64,000 nucleotides of DNA from Paludibacteraceae bacterium (lineage in GTDB: Bacteria > Bacteroidota > Bacteroidia > Bacteroidales > Paludibacteraceae): positions 30,785 to 94,784 of the forward strand of contig CAJOCN010000002.1 of assembly GCA_905233255.1 (NCBI GenBank), given 5' to 3'. Below, in pieces: positions 365 through 59,138 of the stretch. The notes under the pieces are model-generated. The model was not told the DNA's origin. It worked only from the letters and a program-made list of their open reading frames with translations, and ran no database searches. Positions within the stretch are counted from its first letter, which is position 1. The number at the start of each line of letters is the position of its first letter. Made by a program: the position numbers and the translations under genes.

Positions 365-900
365 CTCAAATGGTCGGTTGTCTCCGGCCCATATTCAAAT
401 AATTCATCTAATATGCTTTTACCGTCTCCAAAAAAACGGTTCAACTCTTCGCCTCTCCAATCCGCCGTACACCGATAGGCAAATTTTTCTCCGTCTCCGG
501 AAGAGAGGGTCGGGGAGAGGTTTTTCAGTAACATCATGATCGTCTCATGTATCTCGCTGTTGAAATCCCATAAAAACCGGTACTCTTTCTCGTAGAACGG
601 CTTGAAAAACTCCTCGTAGTAGTCAAAATACGGTGTGTGTTTATAGGCCGATACCAGCGAAATCCAATGTTGGTGTTGCCACCGGCTCTGATAACTGATC
701 TCAATGTCCCGCGTCAGCTGCTTGTGCTCCACTTTCTTCACAGGAACGCTCAGCATGATACCTTTTCCAATCGTGCAACGATTCCTGCAGGTCTGTTTCT
801 CAAAACTCTCCAGCCCTTCGATCTCCACTTCCTCCGGAGCCGCCAGATATGCTCTGTACCACTCCTTCGGTGCCATATATGCAATCGGTAATACCATCAT
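361..900 (-). CDS. WbqC-like family protein
   Basis: The 179-residue protein begins MMVLPIAYMAPKEWYRAYL and contains EKQTCRNRCTIG, SVPVKK, ISYQSRWQHQHW and SAYKHTPYFDYY, the successive blocks of the WbqC-like family. These proteins are often encoded near polysaccharide loci; their biochemical activity is not established. Here the gene sits between lepB (4-nt ATGA overlap) and ilvE (4-nt overlap), which suggests co-expression rather than a shared pathway. Residues about 125-137 (NLSPTLSSGDGEKF) are encoded by a decayed in-frame copy of the CGP palindrome. Cytosolic: no signal peptide or membrane segment is visible. Confidence 0.85.
   Translation of the reverse strand: MMVLPIAYMAPKEWYRAYLAAPEEVEIEGLESFEKQTCRNRCTIGKGIMLSVPVKKVEHKQLTRDIEISYQSRWQHQHWISLVSAYKHTPYFDYYEEFFKPFYEKEYRFLWDFNSEIHETIMMLLKNLSPTLSSGDGEKFAYRCTADWRGEELNRFFGDGKSILDELFEYGPETTDHLR
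490..525 (-). repeat. CGP palindrome, decayed copy inside the wbqC-like gene
   Basis: The plus strand reads GGAAGAGAGGGTCGGGGAGA, matching the right half of the fuller copies at 10329 and 35180; the left arm is eroded. In the gene it reads NLSPTLSSGDG, the same register as NLSPTLPSREG in the esterase at 35 kb. Confidence 0.65.
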
Positions 901-2306
901 CTGCCTGTGGCTTTGCGTCCCAACCGCTCCCAGCGGATGCCGTGTTTGTCTTTATCCAGACTCAGCCAGATAAATACCGGCCGACCGACGATATGATCCT
1001 CCGGCACGAATCCCCAGTAACGGCTGTCGGCGGAGTTATGGCGGTTATCGCCCTGCATCCAGTAGTAATCCATCTTAAACTCATACTCCTCGCCAATCGC
1101 CATCGGCTGGAACTCGTAGGCGTCTGCGATACGCTTATAAACCCAATAATTTTCCTCGGTAATCATAATCTTGTCGCCTTTCCGCGGAATATAAATCGGT
1201 CCGTAGTTGTCCCGCGTCCAGTCGTTATGACCGAGCGGATAAACGGCTCCGCCGCGTTCCTCGGGTTCTACCGCGATGCCTGACACATGCGGGTTCTTCG
1301 CCAACTCGCTTTTCATCTCCGCTGTCAGCGGAAAATGCCATGTTTGCGGGTCTATCTGCACGCGGTCTGCCACGCTGATTCCGATTTTCTCCAGATACTT
1401 GGCGGTGAAGATATGTCCGTCCGTCCGCACCAGATAATTGAGCTGCAACCCCTCTCTCTCCGGCTCACGGATCCAACCACCAGACCACTCCAACTCCCCT
1501 ACAGGGGAGAGTGCCTGATCATCCCCCTTTAGGGGGATAGAGGGGGTCTTTGTCTTCGTGAAAATCGTGTTGTCCACGATTTTCAGACTGTCTCCCGGCT
1601 CACCCACGCAACGCTTCACGTAGTTCTCCCGCCTGTCCACCGGACGGGTTACAATCTCGCCGAATACGTCCTTGCGACTCTTAATCAACGCCTCGCCGTA
1701 ATAATGTTTCAGCGTGTAATAATCCGGATTTTGCATCTTCAGACACACGGTATCGCCTGCCGGAAAATTGAATACCACAATATCGCCCTTCTGCGGACTT
1801 GTCCAACCTTTGAGACGTTTGTACTCCCAGTGCGGCCAATCCAGATAACTCTTGCCGCCACCAAGCCATGCCGGCATCGTGTGTTGTACTAAAGGCATAC
1901 TCAGCGGCGTCTGCGGCACGCGCGCACCATAAGCCATCTTGCTGACGTACAGAAAATCACCCACACGCAGACTCTTCTCCAGACTCGAACTCGGGATCTG
2001 GTAGTTCTGGAAGATATACAGATTGATAAAATACACCGCTACCAGCGCAAACACAATCGCGTCTATCCAACTGAACAAAGTGTACAGCGCCGGCTTGGTG
2101 TCTTTGTATTTCCGCCACCAGTTGTAGTTGATATACTTGGTGGTGAACGCATCGACGATCAGCGGCAGCAGCACCAGCCACCCGAGACTTGCCCAGTCGC
2201 CCCATGCGACCCAGATAACAAACGCTATATACAGCGCGCTCCACACTCCTGCGCGAACCCATCCGCCGCGCGGCACTTCTGAAATTCTATTTTGAAAACT
2301 TTTCAT
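897..2306 (-). CDS. lepB: Signal peptidase I
   Basis: Type I signal peptidase of 469 residues, cleaving signal peptides at the outer face of the inner membrane. Hydrophobic segments lie near residues 22-52 and 78-98. The catalytic Ser is in IPSSSLEKSLRVGDF (Ser108), the general-base Lys in YVKRCVGEPGD (Lys231), and the C-terminal block is MQGDNRHNSADSRYWGFVP. It is longer than the E. coli enzyme, as usual for Bacteroidota, with inserts between boxes. One insert (about residues 253-275, KTPSIPLKGDD and LSPVGELEW) is encoded by two CGP-type palindromes. It lies 102 nt downstream of dapB and overlaps the wbqC-like gene by 4 nt. Confidence 0.95.
   Translation of the reverse strand: MKSFQNRISEVPRGGWVRAGVWSALYIAFVIWVAWGDWASLGWLVLLPLIVDAFTTKYINYNWWRKYKDTKPALYTLFSWIDAIVFALVAVYFINLYIFQNYQIPSSSLEKSLRVGDFLYVSKMAYGARVPQTPLSMPLVQHTMPAWLGGGKSYLDWPHWEYKRLKGWTSPQKGDIVVFNFPAGDTVCLKMQNPDYYTLKHYYGEALIKSRKDVFGEIVTRPVDRRENYVKRCVGEPGDSLKIVDNTIFTKTKTPSIPLKGDDQALSPVGELEWSGGWIREPEREGLQLNYLVRTDGHIFTAKYLEKIGISVADRVQIDPQTWHFPLTAEMKSELAKNPHVSGIAVEPEERGGAVYPLGHNDWTRDNYGPIYIPRKGDKIMITEENYWVYKRIADAYEFQPMAIGEEYEFKMDYYWMQGDNRHNSADSRYWGFVPEDHIVGRPVFIWLSLDKDKHGIRWERLGRKATGR
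1494..1548 (-). repeat. Two adjacent CGP-type palindromes inside lepB
   Basis: CTCCCCTACAGGGGAG at 1494-1509 and ATCCCCCTTTAGGGGGAT at 1521-1538, followed by AGAGGGGGTC. Both are near-perfect inverted repeats and are read in frame as part of a signal-peptidase insert. They are shorter than the consensus copies and may be a related subfamily. Confidence 0.65.
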
Positions 2307-2337
2307 GTCTAATCAATTACCTATTCATTGCCAGGTA

Positions 2338-2390
2338 ATCACGTATCCTACCTATGCTATATATATTATTTATAATATATATCCCGTGAT
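2338..2390. repeat. AT-rich inverted repeat between dapB and lepB
   Basis: An 11-bp perfect inverted repeat at 2359-2369/2372-2382 (ATATATATTAT, loop TT) is bracketed by an outer ATCACG (2338-2343) / CGTGAT (2385-2390) pair. In the transcript it could form a long hairpin just upstream of the lepB start. There is no T-tract, so it does not look like an intrinsic terminator. Confidence 0.55.
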
Positions 2391-2408
2391 TTTAGCAAAT
2401 AACTATTT

Positions 2409-3107
2409 TTATTGTATATATTTCTCTGCCGCCAGTACTGCTCCTAAGGCAAATCCTCTGCGCCCTTTGGCGATGTGCGTAATGACGAGGGTATCCTCCT
2501 CGCTGTCCCATTTCACTTCGTGCGTTCCAGGCACTTCTCCCTCGCGTATCGACTCAATTTCAATATCTTCGATATTTCGATATTTCGGTATCTCGGTATC
2601 TCGGATTTGTTCCGCAAGGGTCTTTGCCGTGCCGGAGGGTTTGTCGAGCTTATGAATATGGTGTATCTCCTTGATAGAAGGCGTATATTGCGGCTGATCT
2701 TTCATCTTCTGTGCCAGAAGTTTGTTTAACTCAAAGAATATATTCACTCCCACAGAATAATTACTACTCCACACGAGCATTTGTTTGTCATGCGTCCGTC
2801 GGTCTTCGTCCATCAGCGCTGCGGCATCCCACCCGGTGGAGCCGGAGACAACCGGCACTCCTTGCGCCCACGCCTTGCGGATATTACCTTCCGCCGTAGC
2901 CGGCGTAGTGAACTCAATCGCCACATCCGCACTCCTGAACGCCTCACTCTCAAAACCATCTTCCGGGGAATAAACCATTCTCTCCCCCTCTAGGAGGGAG
3001 CCGGAGGGGGTCTTGTCTATAACACATACTATCTCATGTCCGCGTTGCAGAGCCACTTCCTCGATCATGTGGCCCATCTTTCCGTATCCGATAATTGCTA
3101 TTTTCAT
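2409..3107 (-). CDS. dapB: 4-hydroxy-tetrahydrodipicolinate reductase
   Basis: NAD(P)H-dependent reductase of the diaminopimelate/lysine pathway, cytoplasmic. The N-terminal Rossmann motif is IAIIGYGKMG (residues 3-12). The signature EIHHIHKLDKPSGTAK spans residues 147-162, with the general-acid His149 and Lys153. At 232 residues it is slightly short but complete. The segment at residues 32-43 (KTPSGSLLEGER) is a CGP-type palindrome and residues about 170-189 (IPKYRNIEDIEIESIREGE) are an 8-nt repeat array; both fall in surface or variable stretches. It is the first gene after the promoter at 3165-3195 and heads the dapB-lepB-wbqC-ilvE run. Confidence 0.96.
   Translation of the reverse strand: MKIAIIGYGKMGHMIEEVALQRGHEIVCVIDKTPSGSLLEGERMVYSPEDGFESEAFRSADVAIEFTTPATAEGNIRKAWAQGVPVVSGSTGWDAAALMDEDRRTHDKQMLVWSSNYSVGVNIFFELNKLLAQKMKDQPQYTPSIKEIHHIHKLDKPSGTAKTLAEQIRDTEIPKYRNIEDIEIESIREGEVPGTHEVKWDSEEDTLVITHIAKGRRGFALGAVLAAEKYIQ
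2564..2606 (-). repeat. 8-nt word array inside dapB
   Basis: Plus-strand units TCGATATT, TCGATATT, TCGGTATC, TCGGTATC, TCGGATTT follow one another. The gene reads them as RNIEDIEIES. A similar 8-nt family (TGTCGATA, TGCCGATA, TGACGATA) occurs at 44141-44180. Confidence 0.75.
2982..3013 (-). repeat. CGP-type palindrome inside dapB
   Basis: CTCCCCCTCTAGGAGGGAG followed by CCGGAGGGGGTC. Read in frame as KTPSGSLLEGE. Confidence 0.65.
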
Positions 3108-5847: not shown

Positions 5848-7155
5848 TTCCATCATCCACTCCGCTACCGCCTTACCGGCTTTGCGGGCACCGGCGCGGG
5901 TGAAGTGTACACCGTCCGAACCGGCTAATCCCACTTCCTGCCAATGTAACATACTTCCGCTGCCGCCCATCCACCTGTACAGGCTGAAATAAGCGATATT
6001 CTCCTCCATCGCCATCTTCCGCAGCAACCGGTCCATGTACGGTACCATGGGGTAGGTGATCCACTCGCCGTTCTCCTGCGTCAGCATGTCGCTCGGACCG
6101 ATAAAGAGGAACGAAGCCTCCGGTGCGCAGCGGCGCAGGTAACGCACCTGTTGCCGTAGTCCCTTCACGATGCCGGAGATCGTACCTGGGTTCTTATTGG
6201 ACGGGATGGCATTGCCGCCGAACTGCATAATAATCAGCCGGACGTTCTGCTCCCGATAGAAAGTGGCTAACTGCGTGCTGTCGATCTTTGTGAACACCGT
6301 ACCGATACACCCACGCAGAGGTATGTTATCGACGATCACGCCTGTACGGCTCTCCTGCGAGAGACCATAGACGCCTCCGCGGCCACTCAAGAAGACTGTA
6401 TCGCCGGAGGTGGAGTAGTGTACCGAACTGTCGGCAAAAACCTGCCACCGGTCGTAGTGTCCGTTGTTCTGCAGCGGCTTGCAGACGGCTCGGATCTGTT
6501 CGCTGCCTTTCACCAGACTGTCGCTCAGGTACGCCATCTGACCCATTGGTCCGTAGAGTCCATCGGCGCGCTGGTCACGTTTGAAACCATGCACCATATA
6601 CCGCCGCGGTCCCTGCTGGGGCGTCACGAACCTGCCGTTCATGTATAGCTCCTGCCTGACCGTCAGCGACGGAATGGTCTGCGCTAAAGGTAATAATCCT
6701 GCGCCCGAACCGCCGTAACGGCTCTGCAGCGCCTCGCGGATCTGTTGGGTCAGACGATCTTCCTCTATCTGACTGTCACCGTAGTGCAGTACCCGTACCG
6801 TTCGTTCGCCCGCTTCCGTCAGCGAGGCATAGAAAGATGCAAGGAACACCCGGCTGTCCGTCGTGGAATCCACCTGTACCTTGGGAATGGGAAGCCTCTC
6901 TTCGGTCCTCCCCTCAAGGGAAGGAAGAGTGTCTAGGGTGTCTAGGGAGCCTAGTGTATCTAGTGTATCTAGTTCTTCTAGTTCTTCTAGTTCTTCTATG
7001 CTCTCTATCGTCTTCTCCTCGCCCAAGACCTCTGTCAAAGTCGGCCACCGCAGTTCCTGCCCGCCGAGCGCAATGCGTCCGGGCAACACCACACACAGTG
7101 CCGCCAACCCCGCCATCACACAGGCAATGAATATCAGAACTCTAAATGGTTTCAC
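5833..7155 (-). CDS. SGNH/GDSL hydrolase partnering the MBOAT protein
   Basis: 440 residues starting at GTG 7155. An N-terminal membrane anchor (VLIFIACVMAGLAALCVVL) is followed by a low-complexity spacer of 3-residue repeats (ELE/DTL, about residues 52-75) and then the hydrolase domain. Block I is VLHYGDSQIEED with the nucleophile Ser, FGGNA is block III, and DGVHFTRAGA carries the catalytic Asp/His. Such proteins act in the periplasm with MBOAT acyltransferases in polymer acetylation. The gene lies 3 nt after trkH. The spacer is encoded by a 9-nt tandem array, and residues 76-84 (LPSLEGRTEE) by a CGP copy. Confidence 0.85.
   Translation of the reverse strand: MKPFRVLIFIACVMAGLAALCVVLPGRIALGGQELRWPTLTEVLGEEKTIESIEELEELEELDTLDTLGSLDTLDTLPSLEGRTEERLPIPKVQVDSTTDSRVFLASFYASLTEAGERTVRVLHYGDSQIEEDRLTQQIREALQSRYGGSGAGLLPLAQTIPSLTVRQELYMNGRFVTPQQGPRRYMVHGFKRDQRADGLYGPMGQMAYLSDSLVKGSEQIRAVCKPLQNNGHYDRWQVFADSSVHYSTSGDTVFLSGRGGVYGLSQESRTGVIVDNIPLRGCIGTVFTKIDSTQLATFYREQNVRLIIMQFGGNAIPSNKNPGTISGIVKGLRQQVRYLRRCAPEASFLFIGPSDMLTQENGEWITYPMVPYMDRLLRKMAMEENIAYFSLYRWMGGSGSMLHWQEVGLAGSDGVHFTRAGARKAGKAVAEWMMEGVDN
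6904..6926 (-). repeat. CGP palindrome inside the SGNH gene
   Basis: GTCCTCCCCTCAAGGGAAGG; the gene reads LPSLEGRTEE. It directly abuts the 9-nt array. Confidence 0.75.
6932..6994 (-). repeat. 9-nt CTAG tandem array inside the SGNH gene
   Basis: Seven units: TCTAGGGTG, TCTAGGGAG, CCTAGTGTA, TCTAGTGTA, then TCTAGTTCT three times. The period is a multiple of three, so copy-number change would alter the length of the DTL/ELE spacer without breaking the frame. Confidence 0.92.
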
Positions 7156-9938: not shown

Positions 9939-11815
9939 AGTCCTTCTTTGTCTAATTTCAACATATGATAGAGCTCTTTGGTAGAGCCGTGTTCTACGAA
10001 TTGGTCGTTCACACCGAGGCGGATCACCCGCGGCGTGTAGCCGTGGTCAGCCATCCATTCCAGTACCGCGCTGCCTAATCCGCCGGCTATCATGCCGTCC
10101 TCGGCGGTCACGATGGTCTTGAACCGCCGTCCTACCTCGTGTAGTATCTCCTCGTCCATCGGCTTCAGCCACCGCATGTCGTAGTGAGCAAAAGAAACCC
10201 CTCCCGACCTCCCCTCAAGGGAGGAGATCGCTTCGCTCATGGTGTTTCCGATTGCGCCGATGGTCAGGACCGCTATATCCTCTCCGTCCCGGAGCTTGAC
10301 GCCCTTTCCGTACTGTAATTCGGTCTGTCCTCCCTCCCTTGAGGGGAGGGTCGGGGAGGGGTTTGTGCTTATAGGCGTTCTCCCTCTCGGATACCTGATC
10401 GCCACGGGACCTTCCATCGTCTCGGCGAGGCGGAGCATGGCCTCCAGATCTTCCGCTGTACGCGGGGCGCAGATCTGCATGTTGGGGATCGGACGGAGGT
10501 ACGCGAGGTCGAGCAAACCGTGGTGCGTCGCACCGTCGTTGCCTACGATACCTGCGCGGTCGATACAGAGTACCACGTGCAGGTTCAGTAGCGCTACGTC
10601 ATGGACGATGTTATCGTACGCCCGCTGCAGGAACGTGGAGTAGATATTACAGTACGGGATCATTCCGGCTTTGGCGAGTCCGGCGCTGAAGGTCACGGCG
10701 TGCCCCTCGGCGATGCCTACGTCATACACCCGCTCCGGCAGCTCTTTCTGCATGATACTCATGGAGCACCCGCTGGGCATCGCCGGCGTGATACCGACGA
10801 CTTTCTCGTTCTTCTTCGCTATATCCAGCAACGTCTCGCCGAACACCTCCTGCCACAGCGGCGTGTTTTCTCCATTAGCCTTTAACCTTTCGCCATTCGC
10901 CACATTGAACTCTCCCGGTGCGTGCCATACGGTCTGGTCGTTCTCCGCCGGCGCATAACCCTTGCCTTTCTTGGTGATAATATGCAGCACTTTGGGTCCG
11001 CGGTGGTTCTTGATCTCACTCAGAATACGCACCAACCCTTCTACGTCGTGGCCGTCCGTCGGACCGAAATAGCGGATATTGAGACCCGTGAAGATATTAC
11101 TCTTCTGCTTGCTCAGCGCCGCTTTGATGTTATTGTTGCGCCGCAGGATACGTCCTTTCTTGGCGTCGTCAATCAGATGCAACTTCACCGCCAGCTTATA
11201 CGCTCTCCACCGCCATTTATTGTAGGTCTCGCTGGTCGTCAGATCCACGAGGTACTGGGTAAAACCGCCCTTGAGCGGATCGATCGCCATGTGGTTGTCG
11301 TTGAGGACGATGAGCAGATTGTTCTTGTCCATCGAGGTGTTGTTCAGTCCCTCGAACGCCAACCCGCCCGTCATCGCTCCGTCCCCGATGATCGCTACGG
11401 TGTTGTGACCTGATTTTTTATTGGCTATATCAAGGCCTAAAGCCGCAGATATAGAGTTAGAGGCGTGCCCGGCGATGAACGCGTCATACTCGCTCTCTGC
11501 AGGGTTGGTGAAAGGCGATAGACCCTTGAACTGCCGGTTCGTATGAAACCGGTCCCGCCGGCCTGTCAGAATCTTATGGGCGTAAGCCTGGTGTCCCACG
11601 TCCCACACTAATTTGTCGTTCGGCGTGTCGAACACATAATGCAGCGCTACGGTCAACTCGATCGTCCCTAACGACGATGCCAAATGACCGGGGTTCTTGC
11701 TCAACGCCTCGATGATAAACTGCCGCAACTCCGCACACACCGCCGGCAGTTCTCCCACAGGGACTTTCTTCAAATCCGCCGGCGAATCAATCTTATTGAT
11801 ATACTGGTATTCCAT
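9905..11815 (-). CDS. dxs: 1-deoxy-D-xylulose-5-phosphate synthase
   Basis: First enzyme of the MEP isoprenoid pathway: condenses pyruvate and glyceraldehyde 3-phosphate using thiamine diphosphate. Visible are GHQAYAHKILTGRRD, the TPP/Mg motif GDGAMTGGLAFEGLNN, and DRAGIVGNDGATHHG in the pyrimidine-binding domain. 636 residues. Three in-frame repeats interrupt it: a 7-nt array at residues about 303-314 (ANGERLKANGE), a CGP copy at about 484-495 (NPSPTLPSREGG), and a CGP copy in the opposite orientation at about 530-540 (SSLEGRSGGVS). The rest is canonical, so the inserts seem tolerated between domains. First gene after the promoter at 11873-11903; heads the run to coaE. Confidence 0.96.
   Translation of the reverse strand: MEYQYINKIDSPADLKKVPVGELPAVCAELRQFIIEALSKNPGHLASSLGTIELTVALHYVFDTPNDKLVWDVGHQAYAHKILTGRRDRFHTNRQFKGLSPFTNPAESEYDAFIAGHASNSISAALGLDIANKKSGHNTVAIIGDGAMTGGLAFEGLNNTSMDKNNLLIVLNDNHMAIDPLKGGFTQYLVDLTTSETYNKWRWRAYKLAVKLHLIDDAKKGRILRRNNNIKAALSKQKSNIFTGLNIRYFGPTDGHDVEGLVRILSEIKNHRGPKVLHIITKKGKGYAPAENDQTVWHAPGEFNVANGERLKANGENTPLWQEVFGETLLDIAKKNEKVVGITPAMPSGCSMSIMQKELPERVYDVGIAEGHAVTFSAGLAKAGMIPYCNIYSTFLQRAYDNIVHDVALLNLHVVLCIDRAGIVGNDGATHHGLLDLAYLRPIPNMQICAPRTAEDLEAMLRLAETMEGPVAIRYPRGRTPISTNPSPTLPSREGGQTELQYGKGVKLRDGEDIAVLTIGAIGNTMSEAISSLEGRSGGVSFAHYDMRWLKPMDEEILHEVGRRFKTIVTAEDGMIAGGLGSAVLEWMADHGYTPRVIRLGVNDQFVEHGSTKELYHMLKLDKEGLCESLLQVPVK
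10196..10226 (-). repeat. CGP palindrome inside dxs, reverse orientation
   Basis: CCCTCCCGACCTCCCCTCAA then GGGAGGAG. In frame as SSLEGRSGGVS. Confidence 0.85.
10329..10363 (-). repeat. CGP palindrome inside dxs, forward orientation
   Basis: CCTCCCTCCCTTGAGGGGAG then GGTCGGGGAGGGG, one of the two best-preserved copies. In frame as NPSPTLPSREGG. Two opposite copies only about 105 nt apart in one gene could also pair with each other. Confidence 0.9.
10872..10906 (-). repeat. 7-nt array (CCTTTCG family) inside dxs
   Basis: CCATTAG, CCTTTAA, CCTTTCG, CCATTCG, CCACATT. Read in frame as NGERLKANGE. Related arrays at 12119, 30395, 33348 and 48168. Confidence 0.75.
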
Positions 11816-11903: not shown

Positions 11904-11910
11904 GAAAAGT

Positions 11911-11983: not shown

Positions 11984-13208
11984 CCCGTTCTGCCCAAAGA
12001 AGCGTGGGCTTTCCGGCAATACGGCAACCGATCACATATTCCTCTCCGCCGTCCCGGAGGTGTAGTTTTTTCTTCAGTTGCTCAGCACTGAGCGGGTAGT
12101 TGCGCACGAGTACATTGGCCTTTAACCCTTCCCCTTTCGCCTTTCCCCTTTCGCCCTTCGCCTTTACCTCCCATACCCTGCCCGGAAAATCAGGCACGAA
12201 CCGATCGGATACGTACAGATGGGTGTTTACATCTAATTTATGCAGCCCGAACCGTGCACCCACCAACTTGTACGCGCCGGCTTTGAGGATAGCGGCGGAA
12301 GGCTCGTAGAGCCAAAAGCCCGCAAACCCCACCCCGACCCTCCCCTCAAAGGGAGGGAGGGTAGTGTCTCGTTCTTCCTCGCGGGTGAAGACAAACGCCT
12401 GCTCCGGCTTCGAGAGATCAATCGCGGTGATAGTAGGTTCGGGTTTTCGATTTTCCGGCAGATCGGTATATCGACTCACCAACAACACTTCCTTCACCTC
12501 GTTCTTCACCGCCACTACGTGCACATCCCATGTGAGGTCTGAGGGCAGACCGCTGACGGCTGAGAGCTCTTTAATCGCTTGTGTGAGATCGAGCATGGGC
12601 GACAGTTTGAGCATGATTCGTCCGTCCGGCGCGAGGTGCGCTAACAGGCTCGGCAGCAACTCCACTACATTAGGCGTGCAGTCGGCCAAGCGGAAGACTT
12701 TGCCTCCGTGACTGTCCCGCCGCGCCGGATCGAGGAAGATTAAACCCCACCCGGCCTCCCCACAGGGGGAGGAGAGAAGGAAATCCTCGGCGGTGGTGTT
12801 GTGGACGGCAATGGAGAGCTTTTGTCTTTCGACTTTCGACTTTCGACTAAGAGCGAAATTGTGTTCGGCAATGCGGCATAGCTCTGTGTTTTGCTCCACG
12901 TAGTCGGTGTGGTCAAAGCACTCGCTCAGGAAGTACGTGTCCACTCCGTACCCGCCGGTGAGATCAAGACAAGTACCATTTGACCAAGTACCATTTACCA
13001 TTTGGGCTTTGTAGCGCGCGGTGAGTTCCGATGAGCACTGCTCGCAACTCAGTCGCACCGGATACCACCAGTCGTCGATAGCGGCGAACGTGGGCAGCTT
13101 GTCCGCCGTCCGTTCACGCCCTTCGACCTGTTGCAGGAACCACCGCCACTCTTCGTCGCTCAGGTGCTTGTATTTATCGCGCTGAAACGCTAAGTCTTGC
13201 GCCTGCAT
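11979..13208 (-). CDS. THUMP-like / class I SAM-dependent methyltransferase
   Basis: 409 residues. The methyltransferase core shows CLDLTGGYGVDTYFL (motif I), DYVEQNTELCRIAEHNF (motif II) and LIFLDPARRD, followed by LKLSPMLDLTQAI. The C-terminal part resembles the THUMP-like domain of Bacteroidota proteins annotated as class I methyltransferases. The target, likely RNA, is unproven. This gene carries five repeats in frame: a 7-nt array at residues about 68-79 (MVNGTWSNGT), another at 119-128 (SRKSKVERQ), CGP copies at 144-155 (SSPCGEAGWG) and 282-294 (LPPFEGRVGVG), and a 7-nt array at 347-363 (KAKGERGKAKGE). It overlaps the SpoIID-like gene by 35 nt and ends in a terminator. Confidence 0.82.
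   Translation of the reverse strand: MQAQDLAFQRDKYKHLSDEEWRWFLQQVEGRERTADKLPTFAAIDDWWYPVRLSCEQCSSELTARYKAQMVNGTWSNGTCLDLTGGYGVDTYFLSECFDHTDYVEQNTELCRIAEHNFALSRKSKVERQKLSIAVHNTTAEDFLLSSPCGEAGWGLIFLDPARRDSHGGKVFRLADCTPNVVELLPSLLAHLAPDGRIMLKLSPMLDLTQAIKELSAVSGLPSDLTWDVHVVAVKNEVKEVLLVSRYTDLPENRKPEPTITAIDLSKPEQAFVFTREEERDTTLPPFEGRVGVGFAGFWLYEPSAAILKAGAYKLVGARFGLHKLDVNTHLYVSDRFVPDFPGRVWEVKAKGERGKAKGEGLKANVLVRNYPLSAEQLKKKLHLRDGGEEYVIGCRIAGKPTLLWAERV
12119..12167 (-). repeat. 7-nt array (CCTTTCG) inside the THUMP-like gene
   Basis: Seven units: CCTTTAA, CCCTTCC, CCTTTCG, CCTTTCC, CCTTTCG, CCCTTCG, CCTTTAC. Translated as KAKGERGKAKGEGLKA. Confidence 0.9.
12325..12361 (-). repeat. CGP palindrome inside the THUMP-like gene
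   Basis: ACCCCACCCCGACCCTCCCC then TCAAAGGGAGGGAGG. Read as LPPFEGRVGVGF. Confidence 0.88.
12743..12776 (-). repeat. Second CGP palindrome inside the THUMP-like gene
   Basis: ACCCCACCCGGCCTCCCCAC then AGGGGGAGGAG. Read as [13 protein letters not shown], a different register from the 12325 copy. Confidence 0.85.
12825..12852 (-). repeat. 7-nt array (ACTTTCG) inside the THUMP-like gene
   Basis: TCTTTCG, ACTTTCG, ACTTTCG, ACTAAGA. Encodes SRKSKVERQ. Confidence 0.75.
12971..13004 (-). repeat. 7-nt array (TACCATT) inside the THUMP-like gene
   Basis: TACCATT, TGACCAA, GTACCAT, TTACCAT. Encodes MVNGTWSNGT immediately before SAM motif I. Same family as 14583 and 28005. Confidence 0.7.
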
Positions 13209-14217
13209 AGTAGTATTGTAGAATCTCCTCGTAACTCTTTCCTTCGCTTGCCATGACTGCTGCGCCGATTTGACAGAGACCTGCTCCGTGACCCCATCCG
13301 TGACCGGTGAGGACCCAAGACGAAGCCCCTTCCCGACCTTTCCCTGAAGGGGCGGGAGTGGTTTTCTTTATGTCGAACCAGCTGCTGTAGAGACAGCTGC
13401 GGCTGAGCCATAAACGGATCTTCAGCTCCTTGCCGATGACCTCGGTGTGCTTGGTACCCACGATACGGAGACTGTCGATGCGTCCCGACTCGCCTCTGTG
13501 CAGGGGCTCTAACGCCGTTATATGCCCGAAATCAATACCCGACTTGGTACGTACGATTTCGTCCAACTCGTCCTCCGTGTAAGTCACCTGCCAATCCCTA
13601 AAATCCTTCGTCTCCTGGTCGTAGTCATTGAGCACCAGACGCAACACTTTGGGCGACGGCGACTTGCACCAGTCGCATTGCACCGACCGGATATACGGCA
13701 CGTCGATATCTTCCCAGCACGTGCGCCAGATTTCCGTTTTTCCTCCGCAGCACTTGTGGTACCGGCAGTCACAGATTTCGCCGTCGTAGGTCAGCACCTG
13801 TCCTTCGGTCGCCCGCACGGCTTCCACGGCGCGTTCGCTCATCCGTCTCAATCCCTCGTATCGTTGGCAGTGGTCGTCGGCACACACGTCAAAGTGGGCA
13901 TGGGGCTTGTATGCGATGGCTCGCATCGCCCAGCTGCGGCTGATCACGGCGTGCGCTTTGAGTAACTCCATCGGACTGTCCGCACGCATCTCCGAGGAGA
14001 TGACCGAACAGAGGTAGTCCTCCAACTCAATCGTGTTGATCGCCGTCTGTGAGCCATCGGCGTTATGACGGATTTCCAATTCCCCTGCGAACTCCTGATC
14101 TTCGTATCGGTCCCAGTGGAAGCCGATACCGATCCGCACGTTCTTGAGCAGGAAAGTCTTTTCCCTCCGCTCGTACTCAATCTTCGGCGCCGTTAATATG
14201 CCAACCCGGATTTTCAT
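13174..14217 (-). CDS. SpoIID/LytB domain protein
   Basis: 347 residues. The SpoIID domain is recognised by [54 protein letters not shown] and the C-terminal [15 protein letters not shown] block. SpoIID proteins are lytic transglycosylases acting on denuded glycan strands in sporulating Firmicutes; non-sporulating Bacteroidota carry homologues of unknown role. No signal peptide is visible, which is odd for a peptidoglycan enzyme. Start ATG 14217 overlaps the GT2 stop (ATGA). A CGP copy encodes residues about 286-298 ([11 protein letters not shown]). Confidence 0.88.
13324..13360 (-). repeat. CGP palindrome inside the SpoIID-like gene
   Basis: GCCCCTTCCCGACCTTTCCC then TGAAGGGGCGGGAG. Read as [13 protein letters not shown], a further register. 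Confidence 0.82.
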
Positions 14218-35100: not shown

Positions 35101-36987
35101 TTATTTAACAATCGCGCCTTGCGCGTTATAAACCACGCCGTTGCGGATGATCAGCAGTACACCATCGCGGAGTATCTTTACTCCCTCCCTTGAGGGGAGG
35201 GTCGGGGAGAGGTTCTCAATTCCCTGTGTCGGCTCGAATGCTTGACCCTCGATCTTAACGCTCCTGAGACAGATATATTTGCTGTCCTTCACTTCTCCGA
35301 GGTCATGCCACGGCAGGATACGTACATGCAGCGTCTCGCCGGCGGGGATAGTCAGGGTGGGAGTAATATCAGCGTGCTCCACTACACGGTTGACCATGTG
35401 CTGTCTCTCGGCAATGGTCTTCACACCGGTGAAACCGTCACCGAACCCGGTGTTGATATGGTAGCACATGGTGGATGTACCGTCGGCTCCAATTGCTATC
35501 GAGATTTTGGTGATGCGGACTTCCATTGTAGCCGGTGCTGTAATGGCGAAATCCATATAGCGGCTCGCGTTCTCGTCAATCTCGCCTGCCGGCCATGGCG
35601 TTCTGGCGCTTCCGTCGGCGGAGTTATGGAAACGACCCAATGTCAAATCCGTCTCATCGCCGTCGGTGAAATAGTTCTTGCTACTGCTATTGTAATCGAT
35701 ATACGCCATGTTGTTCATTGAGAACGCTGCGCTGATCGGGCCTTCTACCACCGGCTCCGGCATCGGCTTGGCGTTCACTGTCCAAGTCGCGCTTACGGCA
35801 CTACCGCCTGCCAAAGAGATTACGTTCGCTGTTACGGGTATGGACAGACTGTTGTCGCCGAAAGTAACTACGACGGAGTCTTTGTTCTCGCCTTCGTTCT
35901 CATAAATAGCGCGCACGTAGATCTTTTGGAACAAGGTGCTGCCGGCGTAATCCACGGTAGCCGTCTTCGCGTAGTTCTCTTTGTCTGTCGAGATCGTCAG
36001 CGCGCCTGTCGCATGAAGCGATACGGTGCCGCTTGCGGGCTCCAGACCAAATCCGGTCAGCAGGAACTCTTTGTTCTGCGCTACGCCGCTGTAGGTCTCT
36101 CCGATAGTGATGGCGGACGGGTTGGCGGTGATGGAAGTCGGGATATTGATATGTTCTGCCAAAATACCGGCGTCTTTCAGCATCTGTGCCGCCTGGCGTG
36201 CAATCAGGTTGCCTCCCATCGCATTCGTGTGCGTGTTATCTCCGTTGCAGAAAAGGAGCTGCGTGCACTGTTCCTCGCCGTACTCCAGGTACATTTGGCG
36301 CGTCGCCTCCGTCAGGTCGATGAACGGCACGTTCTTCTCTGCCGCTACCACTTTCATGGCCTTCACATAACTCATCGTCGAGTCACCTGCCGGCAGACTC
36401 TGGTTCTCGTACAGCACGCCGTCCTCAATCTTGCTGAACTTGTCGCCCAAGTCGTGCTGACCGTTACGGCGGATGGTGTTGCCGTTGAAATATTTACGGC
36501 AGATGGGACCAACCAAAATCGGGTTGACGCCCAATGCCCGCGCCTCGTCGATAAACTTACGCAGGAACTCGCGGTAAGTCGTTTGCGGGTTCGTGCCGCG
36601 GGCGTCCGTCGGAGCCGGCAAACCCTTCGCCTGACAATATTCAGCGTACTCCAAGTTATCCATTCCGTTGGTCACGGTACCTTCGTCGTTGTGCGCAAAC
36701 TGAATAATGAGGTAATCGCCCTGGCTCATCTGGTTCTTCACGCTTGGCCAATAAGCGTCTCCGGTGTAGAAACCGCGGGTGTCGGCACCCGACTTGCCTC
36801 GGTTATTGACGGTCACGAAAGCGGGATCGAAGAATGAACCTAAGTACATTCCCCAGCCGCGCTTGTCGGTGGTGTTCTCATCGTATTCTGCCATCGTACT
36901 ATCACCGATGGTGTGCACCTTGATGGCACTCATAGCAACCGGCATTCCCATTACCGCTGCCATCAAAATAGCTAAAATCTTTTTCAC
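35101..36987 (-). CDS. Secreted SGNH esterase (rhamnogalacturonan acetylesterase-like)
   Basis: 628 residues, GTG start at 36987, signal peptide ILAILMAAVMGMPVAMSA. Catalytic domain: VHTIGDSTMAEYDENT (block I), VNNRGKSGADTRGF (block II), IQFAHNDEG (block III) and DNTHTNAMGGNLIA (Asp/His). A beta-rich C-terminal half follows. The tail is NLSPTLPSREG (a CGP copy) then VKILRDGVLLIIRNGVVYNA plus QGAIVK, the same short motif as the M6 protease. Likely deacetylates plant pectin or a similar glycan. First gene after the promoter at 37065-37095. Confidence 0.87.
   Translation of the reverse strand: MKKILAILMAAVMGMPVAMSAIKVHTIGDSTMAEYDENTTDKRGWGMYLGSFFDPAFVTVNNRGKSGADTRGFYTGDAYWPSVKNQMSQGDYLIIQFAHNDEGTVTNGMDNLEYAEYCQAKGLPAPTDARGTNPQTTYREFLRKFIDEARALGVNPILVGPICRKYFNGNTIRRNGQHDLGDKFSKIEDGVLYENQSLPAGDSTMSYVKAMKVVAAEKNVPFIDLTEATRQMYLEYGEEQCTQLLFCNGDNTHTNAMGGNLIARQAAQMLKDAGILAEHINIPTSITANPSAITIGETYSGVAQNKEFLLTGFGLEPASGTVSLHATGALTISTDKENYAKTATVDYAGSTLFQKIYVRAIYENEGENKDSVVVTFGDNSLSIPVTANVISLAGGSAVSATWTVNAKPMPEPVVEGPISAAFSMNNMAYIDYNSSSKNYFTDGDETDLTLGRFHNSADGSARTPWPAGEIDENASRYMDFAITAPATMEVRITKISIAIGADGTSTMCYHINTGFGDGFTGVKTIAERQHMVNRVVEHADITPTLTIPAGETLHVRILPWHDLGEVKDSKYICLRSVKIEGQAFEPTQGIENLSPTLPSREGVKILRDGVLLIIRNGVVYNAQGAIVK
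35180..35213 (-). repeat. CGP palindrome inside the esterase gene
   Basis: CTCCCTCCCTTGAGGGGAGG then GTCGGGGAGAGG. Encodes NLSPTLPSREG exactly at the junction between the barrel-like domain and the C-terminal motif. Confidence 0.9.
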
Positions 36988-44189: not shown

Positions 44190-44821
44190 TTCCATTGGAA
44201 AGTCTCTACCATTTTGATGACATCGGTGCGGAGGTATTGATATACCGGCGCGAGGGAGTCTGCGTTCGGCGGACAGTTGCAATAGACCGAAGCACGGAAG
44301 AAATGATGCGTGGAATCGGTCACAAAGAACTGACACGAAGAGGCGGTGTTTCCCTCCAGATCGAAGAGCACGCCATAAACCCTTGCCTCGGGGTGAGCAT
44401 ATTCGCGCTCGGGGATCGCATTGGCGAAAGAGGCGTTGCGATAGACAAAATCCAGCGCGTCGTCGGTCAACTCACGGAGGTTATGATCCACCGTCTTGTA
44501 GGAACAATGGATAGTCGCATCCAGAGCAGGGTAGTATATGTTGATCCAGTAAGGCTCGTCGTTGCGTGGCTGTACTACGGCGTTTCGTGAGAGGGCGAAG
44601 GTGTAAGGATAAGCCCCCCTGCCCCCTGGAGGGGGAGTTGATTGTTGATTGGTGATTGTTGATTGGTGAAAGTCTATATAGGCGGTGTCAGGAACAGAGA
44701 TCCGGTAGTAGCCGTAAGGCTTGGGGGCGGTAGCCTTGTTGCATGCCGTGCACGCCAACAAGGCTAAATTAAAAATTAAAAATTCAAAATTAAGAATTAT
44801 ATTTTTTTGCCAAAAGCCCAT
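44186..44821 (-). CDS. gldD: Gliding motility / type IX secretion lipoprotein GldD
   Basis: 211 residues. GldD hallmarks: KPYGYYRISVPDTAYIDF, YPYTFALSRNAVVQ, YWINIYYPALDATIHCSYKT and LTDDALDFVYRNASFANAIP. GldD is needed for gliding and type IX secretion in Flavobacteria. The lipobox LLACTAC follows a hydrophobic core (IILNFEFLIFNLA) encoded by an AAATTAA 7-nt array, so the signal peptide is largely repeat-derived. Residues about 50-70 (STITNQQSTPPPGGRG) are a GGTGATT array abutting a CGP-like palindrome. Own promoter at 44841-44870. Confidence 0.88.
   Translation of the reverse strand: MGFWQKNIILNFEFLIFNLALLACTACNKATAPKPYGYYRISVPDTAYIDFHQSTITNQQSTPPPGGRGAYPYTFALSRNAVVQPRNDEPYWINIYYPALDATIHCSYKTVDHNLRELTDDALDFVYRNASFANAIPEREYAHPEARVYGVLFDLEGNTASSCQFFVTDSTHHFFRASVYCNCPPNADSLAPVYQYLRTDVIKMVETFQWK
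44612..44637 (-). repeat. CGP-like palindrome inside gldD
   Basis: AGCCCCCCTGCCCCCTGGAG then GGGGAG. Encodes STPPPGGRGAYP; it abuts the 7-nt array at 44637. Confidence 0.65.
44637..44671 (-). repeat. 7-nt array (GTTGATT) inside gldD
   Basis: GTTGATT, GTTGATT, GGTGATT, GTTGATT, GGTGAAA: five exact-period units. Encodes HQSTITNQQST. Confidence 0.92.
44766..44800 (-). repeat. 7-nt array (AAATTAA) encoding the GldD signal core
   Basis: AAATTAA, AAATTAA, AAATTCA, AAATTAA, GAATTAT. Encodes ILNFEFLIFNL. Confidence 0.92.
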
Positions 44822-44840
44822 ATTAATCCAAATTACGGTG

Positions 44841-49511: not shown

Positions 49512-50780
49512 ATGAAAAATATATGTTTTTGCTTCCAGATGCACGCACCATATCGTCTGAAGCGCTATCGTTTCTTTGAGATCGGTCATGATCATTACTA
49601 CTACGATGATATGGCTACGGAAGAACATGTAAACTGGTTGGTTCAGACCTCTTACATGCCGTTGTGCCAGACCATTAAAGAGATGATCAACCTCAGTAAG
49701 GGTAAGTTCCACTGCGGTCTGAGCGTCAGCGGAACGATGATCGAGATGTTCGAACAGTTCAGCCCGGAGATGATTGATATCCTGAAAGAACTGGCGGCTA
49801 CCAAGGCTGTTGAGTTCCTGGCAACTCCGTACAGCTATTCCCTGGCTTCCGAGTACAACGAGGAGGAGTTCAAGAGACAGCTGAAGATTCAAGGCGAACT
49901 GTTAGAGTCGATCCTCGGCGTGAAGGCGCAGAGCGTATGGAACACCGAATTGCTGTACACGGACGAGACGGCTTATAACCTGAATAAGATGGGTTATAAG
50001 ACCATCCTGACTGAGGGCGCCAAGCATATCCTGAGTTGGAAGACCCCGAACAAGGTGTATCAGTCGGCGGGCGCTCCGAAGATGAAAGTGCTGCTCCGCA
50101 ACACCGGTCTGAGCGATGAGCTGAGTTTCCATTTCTCGGATCCGGGATGGGGTAATTTCCCGATTGACGCAGAGAAATATGCGAACCAGTTGCAGGCACT
50201 GCCGGAGGGCGAAGATATCATCAATATATGGGTTGGCGCGGAGACATTCGGTATCCGTCAGAACGCCGGCAGCGGTATCTTTGATTTCCTGAAAGCACTG
50301 CCATACTACGCACTGGAGCGTGAGATGGGCTTCATGACGCCGAGCGAGGCAGCCAAGAAACTGGCGGCGGAGGACGTGCTGTCGAGTCCGTATCCGCTGA
50401 CCTGGAGCGGCGAGGCGAAAGACCTGAGCGTCTATACGGGTAATGACCTGCAGCAGGAAGCGCTGAACAAGCTGTATGCCGTGACGGAGCGCGTACACCT
50501 GTGCCAGGACAAGAACCTGAAGACTAACTGGCTGCGTCTGCAAGACGTGAACTACCTGCATTATATGAATCATATCGATCAGGGCGAGACCCAGTTCGAG
50601 TCCGCTTACGATGCGTTCATCAACTACATGAACGTGCTGTCAGACTTCCTGCAGACGGTAGAGGAGCAATACCCGACGACGATCGAGAACGAGGAGTTGA
50701 ACGAGTTGCTGAAGACCATCCGTAACCAGGAAGAGGAGATTCAGGAACTGCAGGCCAAACTGAAGAAAGCCAAGAAATAA
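49512..50780 (+). CDS. GH57 family alpha-amylase/glucan-acting enzyme
   Basis: 422 residues: ICFCFQMHAPYRLKRYRFFE (QMHxP opening), GLSVSGTMIEMFEQFSP, VEFLATPYSYSLAS, VWNTELLYTDE with the candidate nucleophile Glu, and FSDPGWGNFP. A C-terminal coiled coil (LNELLKTIRNQEEEIQELQA) follows. Acts on alpha-glucans, here presumably cytosolic glycogen. No signal peptide. Confidence 0.9.
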   Translation: MKNICFCFQMHAPYRLKRYRFFEIGHDHYYYDDMATEEHVNWLVQTSYMPLCQTIKEMINLSKGKFHCGLSVSGTMIEMFEQFSPEMIDILKELAATKAVEFLATPYSYSLASEYNEEEFKRQLKIQGELLESILGVKAQSVWNTELLYTDETAYNLNKMGYKTILTEGAKHILSWKTPNKVYQSAGAPKMKVLLRNTGLSDELSFHFSDPGWGNFPIDAEKYANQLQALPEGEDIINIWVGAETFGIRQNAGSGIFDFLKALPYYALEREMGFMTPSEAAKKLAAEDVLSSPYPLTWSGEAKDLSVYTGNDLQQEALNKLYAVTERVHLCQDKNLKTNWLRLQDVNYLHYMNHIDQGETQFESAYDAFINYMNVLSDFLQTVEEQYPTTIENEELNELLKTIRNQEEEIQELQAKLKKAKK

Positions 50781-50810
50781 CCCCACCTGACCTCCCCGCA
50801 AGGGAGGAGT
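50780..50810 (+). repeat. CGP palindrome filling the GH57/porin gap
   Basis: ACCCCACCTGACCTCCCCGC then AAGGGAGGAG. The whole 31-nt intergenic space is this element; its AAGGGAGGAG arm sits 2 nt before the porin ATG, where a ribosome-binding site would be. Confidence 0.85.
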
Positions 50811-50811
50811 T

Positions 50812-56459: not shown

Positions 56460-56489
56460 AACGCCTTCCGAAAGGGAGGCGTTTTTTTA
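56460..56489 (+). terminator. Terminator of rpoD
   Basis: AACGCCTTCC, loop GAAA, GGGAGGCGTT, then TTTTT. Ten base pairs with one G-U. Confidence 0.93.
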
Positions 56490-56523
56490 TTGGTGATTGG
56501 TAATTGGTCATTGGTGATTAATC
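56489..56523. repeat. 7-nt array (ATTGGTG) downstream of rpoD
   Basis: ATTGGTG, ATTGGTA, ATTGGTC, ATTGGTG, ATTAATC. It lies between the rpoD terminator and the convergent small gene, touching that gene's stop. Confidence 0.93.
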
Positions 56524-57530: not shown

Positions 57531-58976
57531 TTATGCAAACTCAAAGTCAATAAAAGCACGATTTACGTCAGTTTGTACCACTTTGACGGTTACAGCATCG
57601 CCTAATTCGTATTTTCGGATATCTCCAATCTTGGAGATGTGGATAAGTCCTTCGCATCGGTTTTCGTCCAGTTGTACGAATAGCCCGAAGTCGGTGATGC
57701 CGGAGACATAACCGGTGTGTATTTCGCCGATGTGATCGGACATCCATAGGGCTTGGAACATCTTGACAGAGTCGCGTTCTGCTTGTGCCGCTTCTTGCTC
57801 GCAGGCGGAGCAATGTTCGCATTTCTCCTCCAGTTCCTCGCGTGTGAGGGAGATCTTCTTGCCGGTGAGGATGTATTTCTCAACGAGGCGGTGTACCATC
57901 AGATCGGGGTAGCGGCGGATGGGCGAGGTGAAATGGGTGTAATGTGAGAAGGCGAGTCCGTAGTGCCCGATGTTATAAGTGGAATAGACAGCTTTCGCCT
58001 GTGCGCGAATGGTGAGCATTTCGATGGCCCGCTTGAAACCTTCCGCAGAGCGTCCGGCGTAGCGCGAGCTTCCGGTACGTGAGGCAAAGCGGTTCTTGAA
58101 GGCTTTTACTTCCTCCAGTTTGTCGGCATCGGGTAGGTCATGCACACGATAGACGAATGGTCGTCCGGAACCGACGGCAGTGGCTACCGTGCGGTTGGCA
58201 AGGAGCATGAACTCCTCGATGAGGTGGTGCGCCTCGTTGGGTCGCTCGAAATAGATGTCCACCGGATGGTGGTGTTCGTCGAGGCGGAACCGCATCTCAT
58301 CCTGCTCGATGGCGAGTGCTCCGTTGAGCAGCCGCTCCGTGCGGAGTTTCTGCGCGAGGGCGTTGAGCGTGGCTATAGCCTCCGTGATCATTCCGTTTTC
58401 CTCCTGACTTCCTCCCGATCCGTTTACGTCTCGTTTACGTGTCGTTTCCGTGTCGTTTACGTGTCGTTTACGTGTTTGAGCCGAATCAGAATGCAGATTG
58501 ATTGAGTCTATGATGGTCTGTGCTTCGTCGTAGTTGAGGCGGGCATTGGAGCGGATGACGGTGCGGCAGATCTTATGCTTGAGTATGCGGGCGTGGCTGT
58601 AGTCTGGTGCGCCCTCTGCGTTCAGGGGAACCTCAAAGGTAAAGATGACGGACATGCAGAGTTTGTCCTCGTTGGGGCGGAGGGAACATTTGTCGTTGCA
58701 GAGTTCCTCGGGCAACATGGGGATGACGCGGTCCACGAGATATATGGAAGTACCGCGGCGGTACGCCTCTTCGTCCACCCGGGTGTCCGGGCGGACGTAA
58801 AATGAGACATCGGCAATGTGGACACCAATCTGGAAAAGGTTATCGGACAGAATCTCGAACGAGAGGGCGTCGTCGAAGTCCTTGGCATCGGCGGGATCAA
58901 TGGTGAAAGTGAAAGCGTCCCGCATGTCGCGTCTGCGGAGTATCTCGTTCTGTATTTCGGTATGAGGTATGATCAT
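57531..58976 (-). CDS. RNase R-like exoribonuclease without N-terminal domains
   Basis: 481 residues. Starts within the RNB domain: RRRDMRDAFTFTIDPADAKD with FDDALS (catalytic Asp cluster), YLVDRVIPMLPEELCNDKCS, FTSPIRRYPDLMVHRLVEKY, then an S1 domain (IHTGYVSGITDFGLFVQLDE). RNase R is about 700 residues in relatives, with two cold-shock domains before RNB; these are absent. An in-frame stop at 58980-58982 and a promoter 38 nt upstream of the ATG show that the short form is the native gene. An 11-nt array encodes residues about 167-183 (TRKRHVNDTETTRKRDVNG). Confidence 0.85.
   Translation of the reverse strand: MIIPHTEIQNEILRRRDMRDAFTFTIDPADAKDFDDALSFEILSDNLFQIGVHIADVSFYVRPDTRVDEEAYRRGTSIYLVDRVIPMLPEELCNDKCSLRPNEDKLCMSVIFTFEVPLNAEGAPDYSHARILKHKICRTVIRSNARLNYDEAQTIIDSINLHSDSAQTRKRHVNDTETTRKRDVNGSGGSQEENGMITEAIATLNALAQKLRTERLLNGALAIEQDEMRFRLDEHHHPVDIYFERPNEAHHLIEEFMLLANRTVATAVGSGRPFVYRVHDLPDADKLEEVKAFKNRFASRTGSSRYAGRSAEGFKRAIEMLTIRAQAKAVYSTYNIGHYGLAFSHYTHFTSPIRRYPDLMVHRLVEKYILTGKKISLTREELEEKCEHCSACEQEAAQAERDSVKMFQALWMSDHIGEIHTGYVSGITDFGLFVQLDENRCEGLIHISKIGDIRKYELGDAVTVKVVQTDVNRAFIDFEFA
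58426..58475 (-). repeat. 11-nt array inside the RNase gene
   Basis: CGTTTACGTCT, CGTTTACGTGT, CGTTTCCGTGT, CGTTTACGTGT, CGTTTACGTGT. Encodes KRHVNDTETTRKRDVNG. Confidence 0.93.
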
Positions 58977-59013
58977 TTGTCAAATAAAGTACACATTTTC
59001 ATTAAATCGGGTG

Positions 59014-59043
59014 CAAAATTACAAAAAATCTTGCATATTTCAA
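59014..59043 (-). promoter_or_regulatory. Promoter of the RNase R-like gene
   Basis: Minus strand TAATTTTG (59021-59014) with TTG at 59043-59041, spacing 19. It overlaps the divergent glgP promoter. Confidence 0.65.
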
Positions 59044-59061
59044 AAAAAAATAGTAATTTTG
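59031..59061 (+). promoter_or_regulatory. Promoter of the glycogen phosphorylase gene
   Basis: TTGCATATTTC, A-tract spacer, TAATTTTG (59054-59061); spacing 20. The resulting leader is about 375 nt. Confidence 0.76.
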
Positions 59062-59100
59062 CGCGGTTTTTTGCTCTTGGTATGATAATAAAGAGAGGCT

Positions 59101-59138
59101 GCCCCCGTCCAGTCTCCCCCTCTATGAGGGCGAGAGCA
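59101..59138. repeat. CGP-like element in the glgP leader
   Basis: GCCCCCGTCCAGTCTCCCCC then TCTATGAGGGCGAGAGC. A diverged copy. Confidence 0.5.

What the first reader, a model, noticed from the sequence alone, without database searches (positions are those of the whole stretch)
490..59138. A dispersed C/G-rich palindrome (CGP) inserted in frame into many protein genes
At least 15 copies in 64 kb share the core CCCTCCCTTGAGGGGAGGG with a GTCGGGGAGGGG flank: 490, 1494, 1521, 2982, 6904, 10196, 10329, 12325, 12743, 13324, 15746, 35180, 44612, 50780, 59101. Thirteen lie inside genes for unrelated proteins (WbqC-like, LepB x2, DapB, SGNH, Dxs x2, THUMP-like x2, SpoIID-like, unknown, esterase, GldD), always in frame and never creating a stop. 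They occur in both orientations and several registers ([48 protein letters not shown]). Rickettsia palindromic elements behave like this, but the sequence is unrelated. A mobile or gene-conversion mechanism that tolerates coding targets is an inference.
Basis: partly seen in the sequence, partly recalled or inferred. Interest (0 to 1): 0.88.

Follow-up and report, generated by a model that had tools for sequence, protein, structure and literature searches.

The report
REP-like palindromes inside protein genes
An unnamed Bacteroidales-like bacterium carries over a hundred copies of a roughly 33-letter DNA palindrome; most copies examined lie inside genes, many of them for conserved proteins, in loops that sister species fill with other short DNA 'words'.

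Summary
The palindrome is real. A covariance model (R1) of ten window copies finds 110 matches at E<=0.001 in the 2.28-Mb host genome, and 0 to 110 in 37 genus members examined. It also occurs in 36 of 179 Bacteroidota genera sampled, and a 31-letter pattern of it in records named Sphingopyxis, Henriciella, Actinomycetota and Thermoanaerobaculia.

The unit is a hairpin with compensatory changes plus a G-rich 3' tail; close pairs are nearly always tail-outward (12 of 14). In 319 kb of the genome 59 of 78 copies lie inside genes, in all six readings, including IleRS, LigA and Dxs.

Orthologues show that it is lineage-specific and sits in variable loops. It is seldom a clean insertion: sister species often carry other words there. 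Where two species share a copy, its third codon positions are 96% identical against 54% in the flanks (13 chosen pairs), which is hard to explain by neutral inheritance.

No Y1/RAYT transposase was found in the host genome and no target duplication. It works like a REP or RPE element but fails defining features of both. New variant of a known kind; the mover is unknown.

The parts
490..522 (+). CGP copy in WbqC-like gene (361-900, -)
   Evidence: R1 40.9 bits; Pfam WbqC
1494..1552 (+). two C/G hairpins in LepB gene (897-2306, -), looser subtype; sister species carry other C/G hairpins or heptad words here
   Evidence: weak R1, E 0.31 to 2.1; orthologue loop alignment
2981..3013 (+). divergent CGP copy in DapB gene (2409-3107, -), identical in G031
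   Evidence: R1 19.3 bits; 33/33 identical, flanks 78%
6893..6925 (-). CGP copy in SGNH/GDSL gene (5833-7155, -)
   Evidence: R1 40.8 bits; Pfam
10195..10226 (-). CGP copy in Dxs (9905-11815, -); tail-outward partner of 10331
   Evidence: R1 45.4 bits; 30-locus Dxs alignment
10331..10363 (+). CGP copy in Dxs (9905-11815, -), peptide NPSPTLPSREGGQ
   Evidence: R1 53.3 bits; gapped in the best PDB match
12325..12357 (-). CGP copy in PG_1098/THUMP-like gene (11979-13208, -); identical in G087 (L062)
   Evidence: R1 46.5 bits; 33/33
12742..12773 (-). CGP copy in the same gene; shared with G018 and G087
   Evidence: R1 40.3 bits; 32/32 and 31/32
13324..13356 (-). CGP copy in SpoIID-like gene (13174-14217, -); +33 nt versus several relatives
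   Evidence: R1 40.8 bits
15745..15776 (-). CGP copy in doubtful N-terminal extension of a GT2 ORF (14214-15839, -)
   Evidence: R1 44.1 bits; upstream coding score -1
35182..35214 (+). CGP copy near the C-terminus of a GDSL esterase (35101-36987, -)
   Evidence: R1 52.5 bits; Pfam
44612..44636 (-). weak C/G hairpin next to a GATTGGT heptad array in GldD (44186-44821, -)
   Evidence: R1 E 3.5; repeats
50778..50809 (-). CGP copy overlapping a stop codon, otherwise between two ORFs
   Evidence: R1 33.9 bits; partial overlap

Best explanation
A non-autonomous, REP-like short palindrome (about 33 nt: 7-bp hairpin plus a G-rich 3' tail of the type TCGGGGNGGGGTT) that multiplies as selfish DNA. Copies land nearly in proportion to coding density; those that persist are in frame and in variable loops. 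The same loops are overwritten repeatedly: a CGP is replaced by, or replaces, other words, and sometimes the same allele (element plus a few flanking codons) is shared between species, probably by short-patch exchange. Shown: copy number, hairpin covariation, pair orientation, lineage-specificity, different words at orthologous loops, near-identity of shared copies inside diverged genes. Inferred: that it is selfish, that copying needs a trans-acting enzyme, that short-patch recombination moves alleles. The enzyme is unknown.
For: 110 copies in the own genome, 0 to 110 among 37 genus members. Hairpin: 24 double-change cells against 5.3 in shuffles, 0 of 500 as high; 2 to 3 such pairs when slid against 5. 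12 of 14 neighbouring pairs within 150 nt are tail-outward (P 3e-6 under 1/4). 59 of 78 copies inside genes, 50 of them with at least 30 codons on each side, in 32 genes. Length differences at intragenic sites are multiples of 3 in 95 of 98 comparisons. At 28 own sites, 93 site-genome pairs: 13 carry the same copy (score >=0.73), 80 score <=0.31, 20 of these heptad arrays. Shared copies: third-position identity 140/146 in the element, 1249/2315 in flanks (13 pairs); 72% in the nearest three codons, falling to 49-55% beyond ten; 42% there in 21 non-shared pairs.
Against: No mobiliser found. No target duplication. No movement seen within a strain. The shared pairs were chosen because they are shared, are few and not independent. 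Shared identity could also be DNA-level constraint. Two of the five covariation measures barely exceed shuffles (27/500 and 157/500 as high), and the alignment was fitted to the hairpin. A diverged C/G hairpin stands at one orthologous site (own L189:2621 against G087, 21/34), and over all loop words identity falls off continuously rather than in two groups. The host is a MAG (97% complete). Gene calls are my own ORF scoring.
Confidence: 0.62

Rival explanations
1. Ordinary REP/REPIN moved by a RAYT (Y1 HUH transposase), the gene being lost, diverged beyond Pfam, or in the unassembled part.
For: Tail-outward doublets. In G254 they are tight inverted repeats, and one lies about 600 nt from a Y1_Tnp match (L251). 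Y1_Tnp matches are present in 12 of 14 phylum carriers and in 9 of 12 carriers of another set.
Against: No Y1_Tnp at E<=0.001 in the own genome, nor in G021 (71 copies, but 63% complete), G086 (22, 1.0 Mb) and the Sphingopyxis record G089 (11). Of 40 Y1 loci examined, the best-scoring part of those found, only L251 has a CGP pair, and that match contains a stop. In the genus, Y1 matches (22 of 61) do not follow copy number by eye; no statistic was computed. GTAG in only 5 of 88 copies.
Confidence: 0.25
2. Short-patch illegitimate recombination: short single strands (hairpin or heptad fragments, own or foreign) anneal at gaps and replace a few dozen bases of a tolerant loop. CGP is only one abundant word.
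For: Replacement more than insertion; many word types in the same loop; four non-CGP word pairs at least 85% identical between species whose flanks keep 32-51% of third positions; decay of identity within about ten codons; no TSD.
Against: Does not by itself explain one sequence recurring in records of several phyla, or the pair orientation. The mechanism is recalled, not seen in a paper (search found none; one unrelated review).
Confidence: 0.2
3. Functional DNA element (hairpin, G-quadruplex, protein-binding or processing site) kept by selection.
For: Hairpin covariation; DNA-level identity of shared copies; two-tetrad G4 pattern in 78 of 88, without a shuffle control.
Against: No match in 9 of 37 genus members; the same copy is absent in 80 of 93 orthologous pairs; three-tetrad G4 pattern in only 20 of 88; one window hairpin folds no better than shuffles (z -0.74); no fixed orientation relative to genes.
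Confidence: 0.1
4. Chance or compositional C/G-rich sequence.
For: GC-rich, low-complexity motif.
Against: 0.01 expected against 6 places; 110 genome matches; a pattern with 26 fixed and two half-fixed letters recurs in 11 contig stretches of varied taxa.
Confidence: 0.01

Closest known systems
REP / BIME / REPIN elements (PMC3733652: abstract, sections 6 and 15, passages; PMC3116915: passages)
   Same: 20-40 nt hairpin, many copies, inverted doublets, some copies inside genes incl. DNA ligase and tRNA synthetases
   Different: GTAG in 5 and CGTC in 17 of 88 copies only; mostly intragenic in the stretches examined; no RAYT found in the host genome; most copies single
Rickettsia palindromic elements (RPE; PMC2229807: passages)
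   Same: palindrome read in frame inside conserved proteins
   Different: RPE 105-146 bp against about 33 nt; different host; RPE sequence itself not compared here
Small variable segments / microdiversity loci (PMC2884548: passages)
   Same: short in-frame intragenic segments that differ between genomes, a minority being simple insertions or deletions
   Different: within-species comparisons, palindromic units being 10-16% of the E. coli microdiversity loci; here species of one genus and dispersed words in the loops
Heptanucleotide repeats such as TAACTGA (PMC4679880: search listing and start of abstract only) and cyanobacterial STRR (recalled)
   Same: 7-nt repeat words dispersed over genomes
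   Different: TAACTGA repeats are titled intergenic; here heptad arrays stand in protein loops that CGP also occupies

Membership tests
REP (GTAG/CGTC) | short palindromic hairpin, high copy | tested here: met
REP (GTAG/CGTC) | GTAG or CGTC tag at one end | tested here: not met
   GTAG in 5 of 88 and CGTC in 17 of 88 copies, anywhere in the element plus 8 nt, either strand; variants such as TGTC or CCTC not counted
REP (GTAG/CGTC) | predominantly extragenic | tested here: not met
   59 of 78 inside genes, 7 overlapping an end, 12 intergenic
REPIN | replicating unit is an inverted doublet | tested here: inconclusive
   12 of 14 close pairs tail-outward, but most of the 120 listed copies are single; G254 has tight doublets
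REPIN | cognate RAYT next to a copy | tested here: not met
   none in the own genome; 1 of 40 Y1 loci elsewhere near a CGP
RPE | palindrome in frame inside conserved genes, lineage-specific | tested here: met
RPE | length 105-146 bp | tested here: not met
   little conservation outside the 33-nt model match (0.60 bits at -1, at most 0.28 elsewhere); match lengths are bounded by the model
RPE | sequence homology to Rickettsia RPE families | not tested
   no RPE sequence fetched
MITE | target-site duplication | tested here: not met
   mean flank repeat 1.32 against 1.30 shuffled
Rfam RNA family | score over gathering cut-off | tested here: not met
   only two tRNAs in the window

The most novel reading that the evidence does not exclude
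Tolerant loops of housekeeping proteins in this genus are exchange sites for a shared vocabulary of short DNA words (CGP palindromes, heptad arrays and others). Words are pasted over one another within genomes, and between species with co-transferred tracts of only tens of bases, by a short-patch process without a dedicated transposase; CGP is its most recognisable word and recurs across phyla.
Probability: 0.22. Interest if true: 0.88.

Novelty: new variant of a known kind. Interest (0 to 1): 0.68.

Why it matters
In the papers I saw, palindromes inside genes are an RPE speciality or a minority of REP copies. Here, in the stretches examined, they are the majority, in dozens of genes including aminoacyl-tRNA synthetase and DNA ligase genes, in a genome with no detectable RAYT, and with a sequence that recurs in records of several phyla. 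The loop comparison makes an old question (how do short palindromes and heptad repeats spread?) testable, because many congeners show alternative alleles side by side. It also warns that loop indels in alignments of such taxa can be repeat DNA rather than protein innovation.

Tried and rejected
RAYT: not found in the own genome by Pfam; left open elsewhere. Target motif: little beyond C/T at -1 and a mild pyrimidine bias. G-quadruplex as the conserved feature: three-tetrad pattern in only 20 of 88. Vehicle: no exact match to the pattern in viral contigs, no match in plasmids, phages or E. coli (BLAST's low-complexity filter makes these three weak). Tree conflict as proof of transfer: in the AsmA-like gene own and G002 share a pair that closer G018 lacks, but for DapB and THUMP the species are about equally distant, so I do not claim it. 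A second subtype with tail GGGGGTCT: one regex match in 319 kb, not established. Papers: among those listed by searches none describes this sequence; lists were capped and the library lacks most subscription papers. Rows left out of counts: one search used 78 of the 88 rows (ten on short loci dropped); one search used 15 of the 17 pairs (a diverged hairpin, 21/34, and a different word, 15/33, dropped); two shared pairs known (SpoIID-G018, THUMP-G087) were not among the 93, whose 80 non-shared pairs include a few different or diverged C/G hairpins.
Full report
What is there. The window is G000:C2:30785-94784 of a 2.28-Mb genome in 74 contigs, 97% complete. The exact core is present twice, and six places match within 3 mismatches against 0.01 expected. 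From ten window copies I built a covariance model R1: 33 positions, a 7-bp hairpin, then a G-rich tail. Ten of the 15 sites named score E<=1.1e-9 (they are the training set), one scores 1.5e-4, and four are weak or absent. In the whole genome R1 gives 145 rows at E<=1 (150 of 985 candidates scored) and 110 matches at E<=0.001.

Anatomy. On 86 distinct copies from the window and own-genome stretches the hairpin keeps 94% standard pairs; 24 cells change on both sides against 5.3 in shuffles, none of 500 as high. Two other measures are less clear (pairs changed on both sides: 27 of 500 shuffles as high; further pair types: 157 of 500), and the alignment was fitted to the hairpin. Outside the 33-nt match there is little conservation, and no target-site duplication was detected. 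Among neighbouring copies within 150 nt, 12 of 14 pairs are tail-outward, two are same-strand and none is tail-inward (list of 120 copied by hand). In G254, another Bacteroidota genome, such pairs are tight inverted repeats of about 80 nt, one folding at z -13; two own pairs fold at z -2.4, a single window hairpin at -0.74.

Where it sits. In 318,875 nt of own genome (the window plus 20 stretches chosen because they hold copies, so not a random sample), with my own ORF-based gene calls, 59 of 78 copies are inside genes, 7 overlap an end and 12 are intergenic; the coding fraction is 86%. 50 of the 59 have at least 30 codons on both sides, in 32 genes, 46 with positive coding scores on both sides. 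All six readings occur. Hosts include WbqC-like, DapB, Dxs, PG_1098/THUMP-like and SpoIID-like genes, LigA, a RecF/SMC-like ATPase, a U32 peptidase, a protein with a RapZ C-terminal domain, a DAHP synthase/chorismate mutase and IleRS. There is slight avoidance of genes at most (P 0.01 for 59 or fewer, 0.42 counting overlaps). The LepB and GldD hairpins of the window are not among these 78; G002 has a strong copy inside its LepB.

Orthologues. LepB matches were found in 61 of 61 genomes, Dxs in 60, the THUMP-like gene in 37; 30 loci each were kept. The elements fall in variable loops. In the best PDB match the first Dxs and first IleRS sites are gapped by 8 and 10 residues; for DapB the alignment does not decide. 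In the same loops sister species carry other words: heptanucleotide arrays, a CTGTCAGTCCGAAGGAC word, or other C/G hairpins. At one IleRS site G006, G003 and G030 have a short turn, G018, G002, G004 and G015 heptad-type words, the own genome a CGP. At 28 of 88 own copies an orthologous site was found in the relatives fetched. Of 93 site-genome pairs 13 carry the same CGP (score 0.73 or more) and 80 score 0.31 or less; 20 of the 80 are heptad arrays at a threshold that 1% of coding windows pass, and a few are different or diverged C/G hairpins. Length differences at intragenic sites are multiples of three in 95 of 98 comparisons but vary widely; the SpoIID site is +33 against five of the seven relatives listed.

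An unexpected result. In 15 shared pairs the element is 466/487 identical while flank windows average 78%; 12 of 15 reach 94% against 4.3% of flank windows. By codon position (13 intragenic pairs, some from one gene) third positions are 140/146 identical in the element and 1249/2315 in flanks. Beside the element third-position identity is 72%, 63% and 60% at codons 1-3, 4-6 and 7-10, then 49-55%. In 21 pairs that do not share the element it is 42% in the nearest codons, with the same far baseline. Over six loops and 970 locus pairs, 13 words are at least 85% identical: seven are a short conserved THUMP peptide, two are CGP, four are other words whose flanks keep 32-51% of third positions; overall, word identity falls off continuously, not in two groups. 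Either loop words are exchanged between species in very short tracts, or they are constrained as DNA; the non-CGP cases and the flank gradient lean towards exchange. The pairs are few and were chosen because the word is shared.

Spread. 28 of 37 genus members examined carry R1 matches (0 to 110 copies), and 4 of 24 other members of the order. In the phylum 50 of 392 genomes including the own one, 36 of 179 genera, at E<=1e-5 (18 candidates scored per genome, so lower bounds). The 31-letter pattern is found in 11 stretches, among them Sphingopyxis, Henriciella, an Actinomycetota MAG and a Thermoanaerobaculia MAG; MAG contigs can be misbinned, but the first two are not labelled MAG. The ten genomes behind these stretches hold 10 to 99 matches. 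In a Sphingobacteriales MAG it lies inside a 707-codon open frame.

Mover. No Y1_Tnp match at E<=0.001 in the own genome, G021, G086 or Sphingopyxis G089; 9 of 12 carriers in that set and 12 of 14 in another do have one. Of 40 Y1 loci, one lies near a CGP pair. In the genus, genomes without CGP have Y1 matches (G019, G023, G036), and the richest ones have none or weak partial ones. A cognate RAYT therefore seems not to be required for persistence, though past activity is not excluded.

Comparison with known kinds. REP elements inside genes, including DNA ligase and tRNA synthetases, are described (PMC3733652, section 15 read), as are RPE in Rickettsia (PMC2229807, passages) and REPINs (PMC3116915, passages); TnpA-REP classes come from PMC6006769 (abstract and passages). 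CGP resembles these but lacks the tags in most copies, is mostly intragenic where examined and has no RAYT found in its host. I therefore call it a new variant of a known kind.

Noticed in passing
window 11896-11973, 12109-12158, 14794-15215, 17059-17093, 20575-20652, 44633-44891, 56474-56532: Dispersed heptanucleotide arrays (AAATTTG, TGAAAAA, CCTTTCG, GATTGGT, AAAATTA types), some inside genes; sister species carry such arrays in loops where this genome has CGP.
   Followed up: partly
L112, L124, L130, L146, L150 (Dxs and THUMP loops): Another word around CTGTCAGTCCGAAGGACGGTCTGTCAG recurs in unrelated protein loops of several species.
   Followed up: no
L272-L279 and L251 (G254): Another Bacteroidota genome has tight inverted doublets of the same palindrome, one about 600 nt from a Y1_Tnp match that contains a stop.
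   Followed up: partly
table, e.g. G003:C2:46677-46829, G018:C52:7003-7167, G034:C12:8269-8418: Several genus members have weak partial Y1_Tnp matches inside open frames of about 330-400 codons, unexplained.
   Followed up: no
window 58421-58475 and 59195-59414: 11-nt repeat units inside ORF 57531-58976 and a 44-nt tandem repeat nearby.
   Followed up: no
L171:3367-3805: Four same-strand CGP copies about 100-200 nt apart inside one DUF4861 gene.
   Followed up: no
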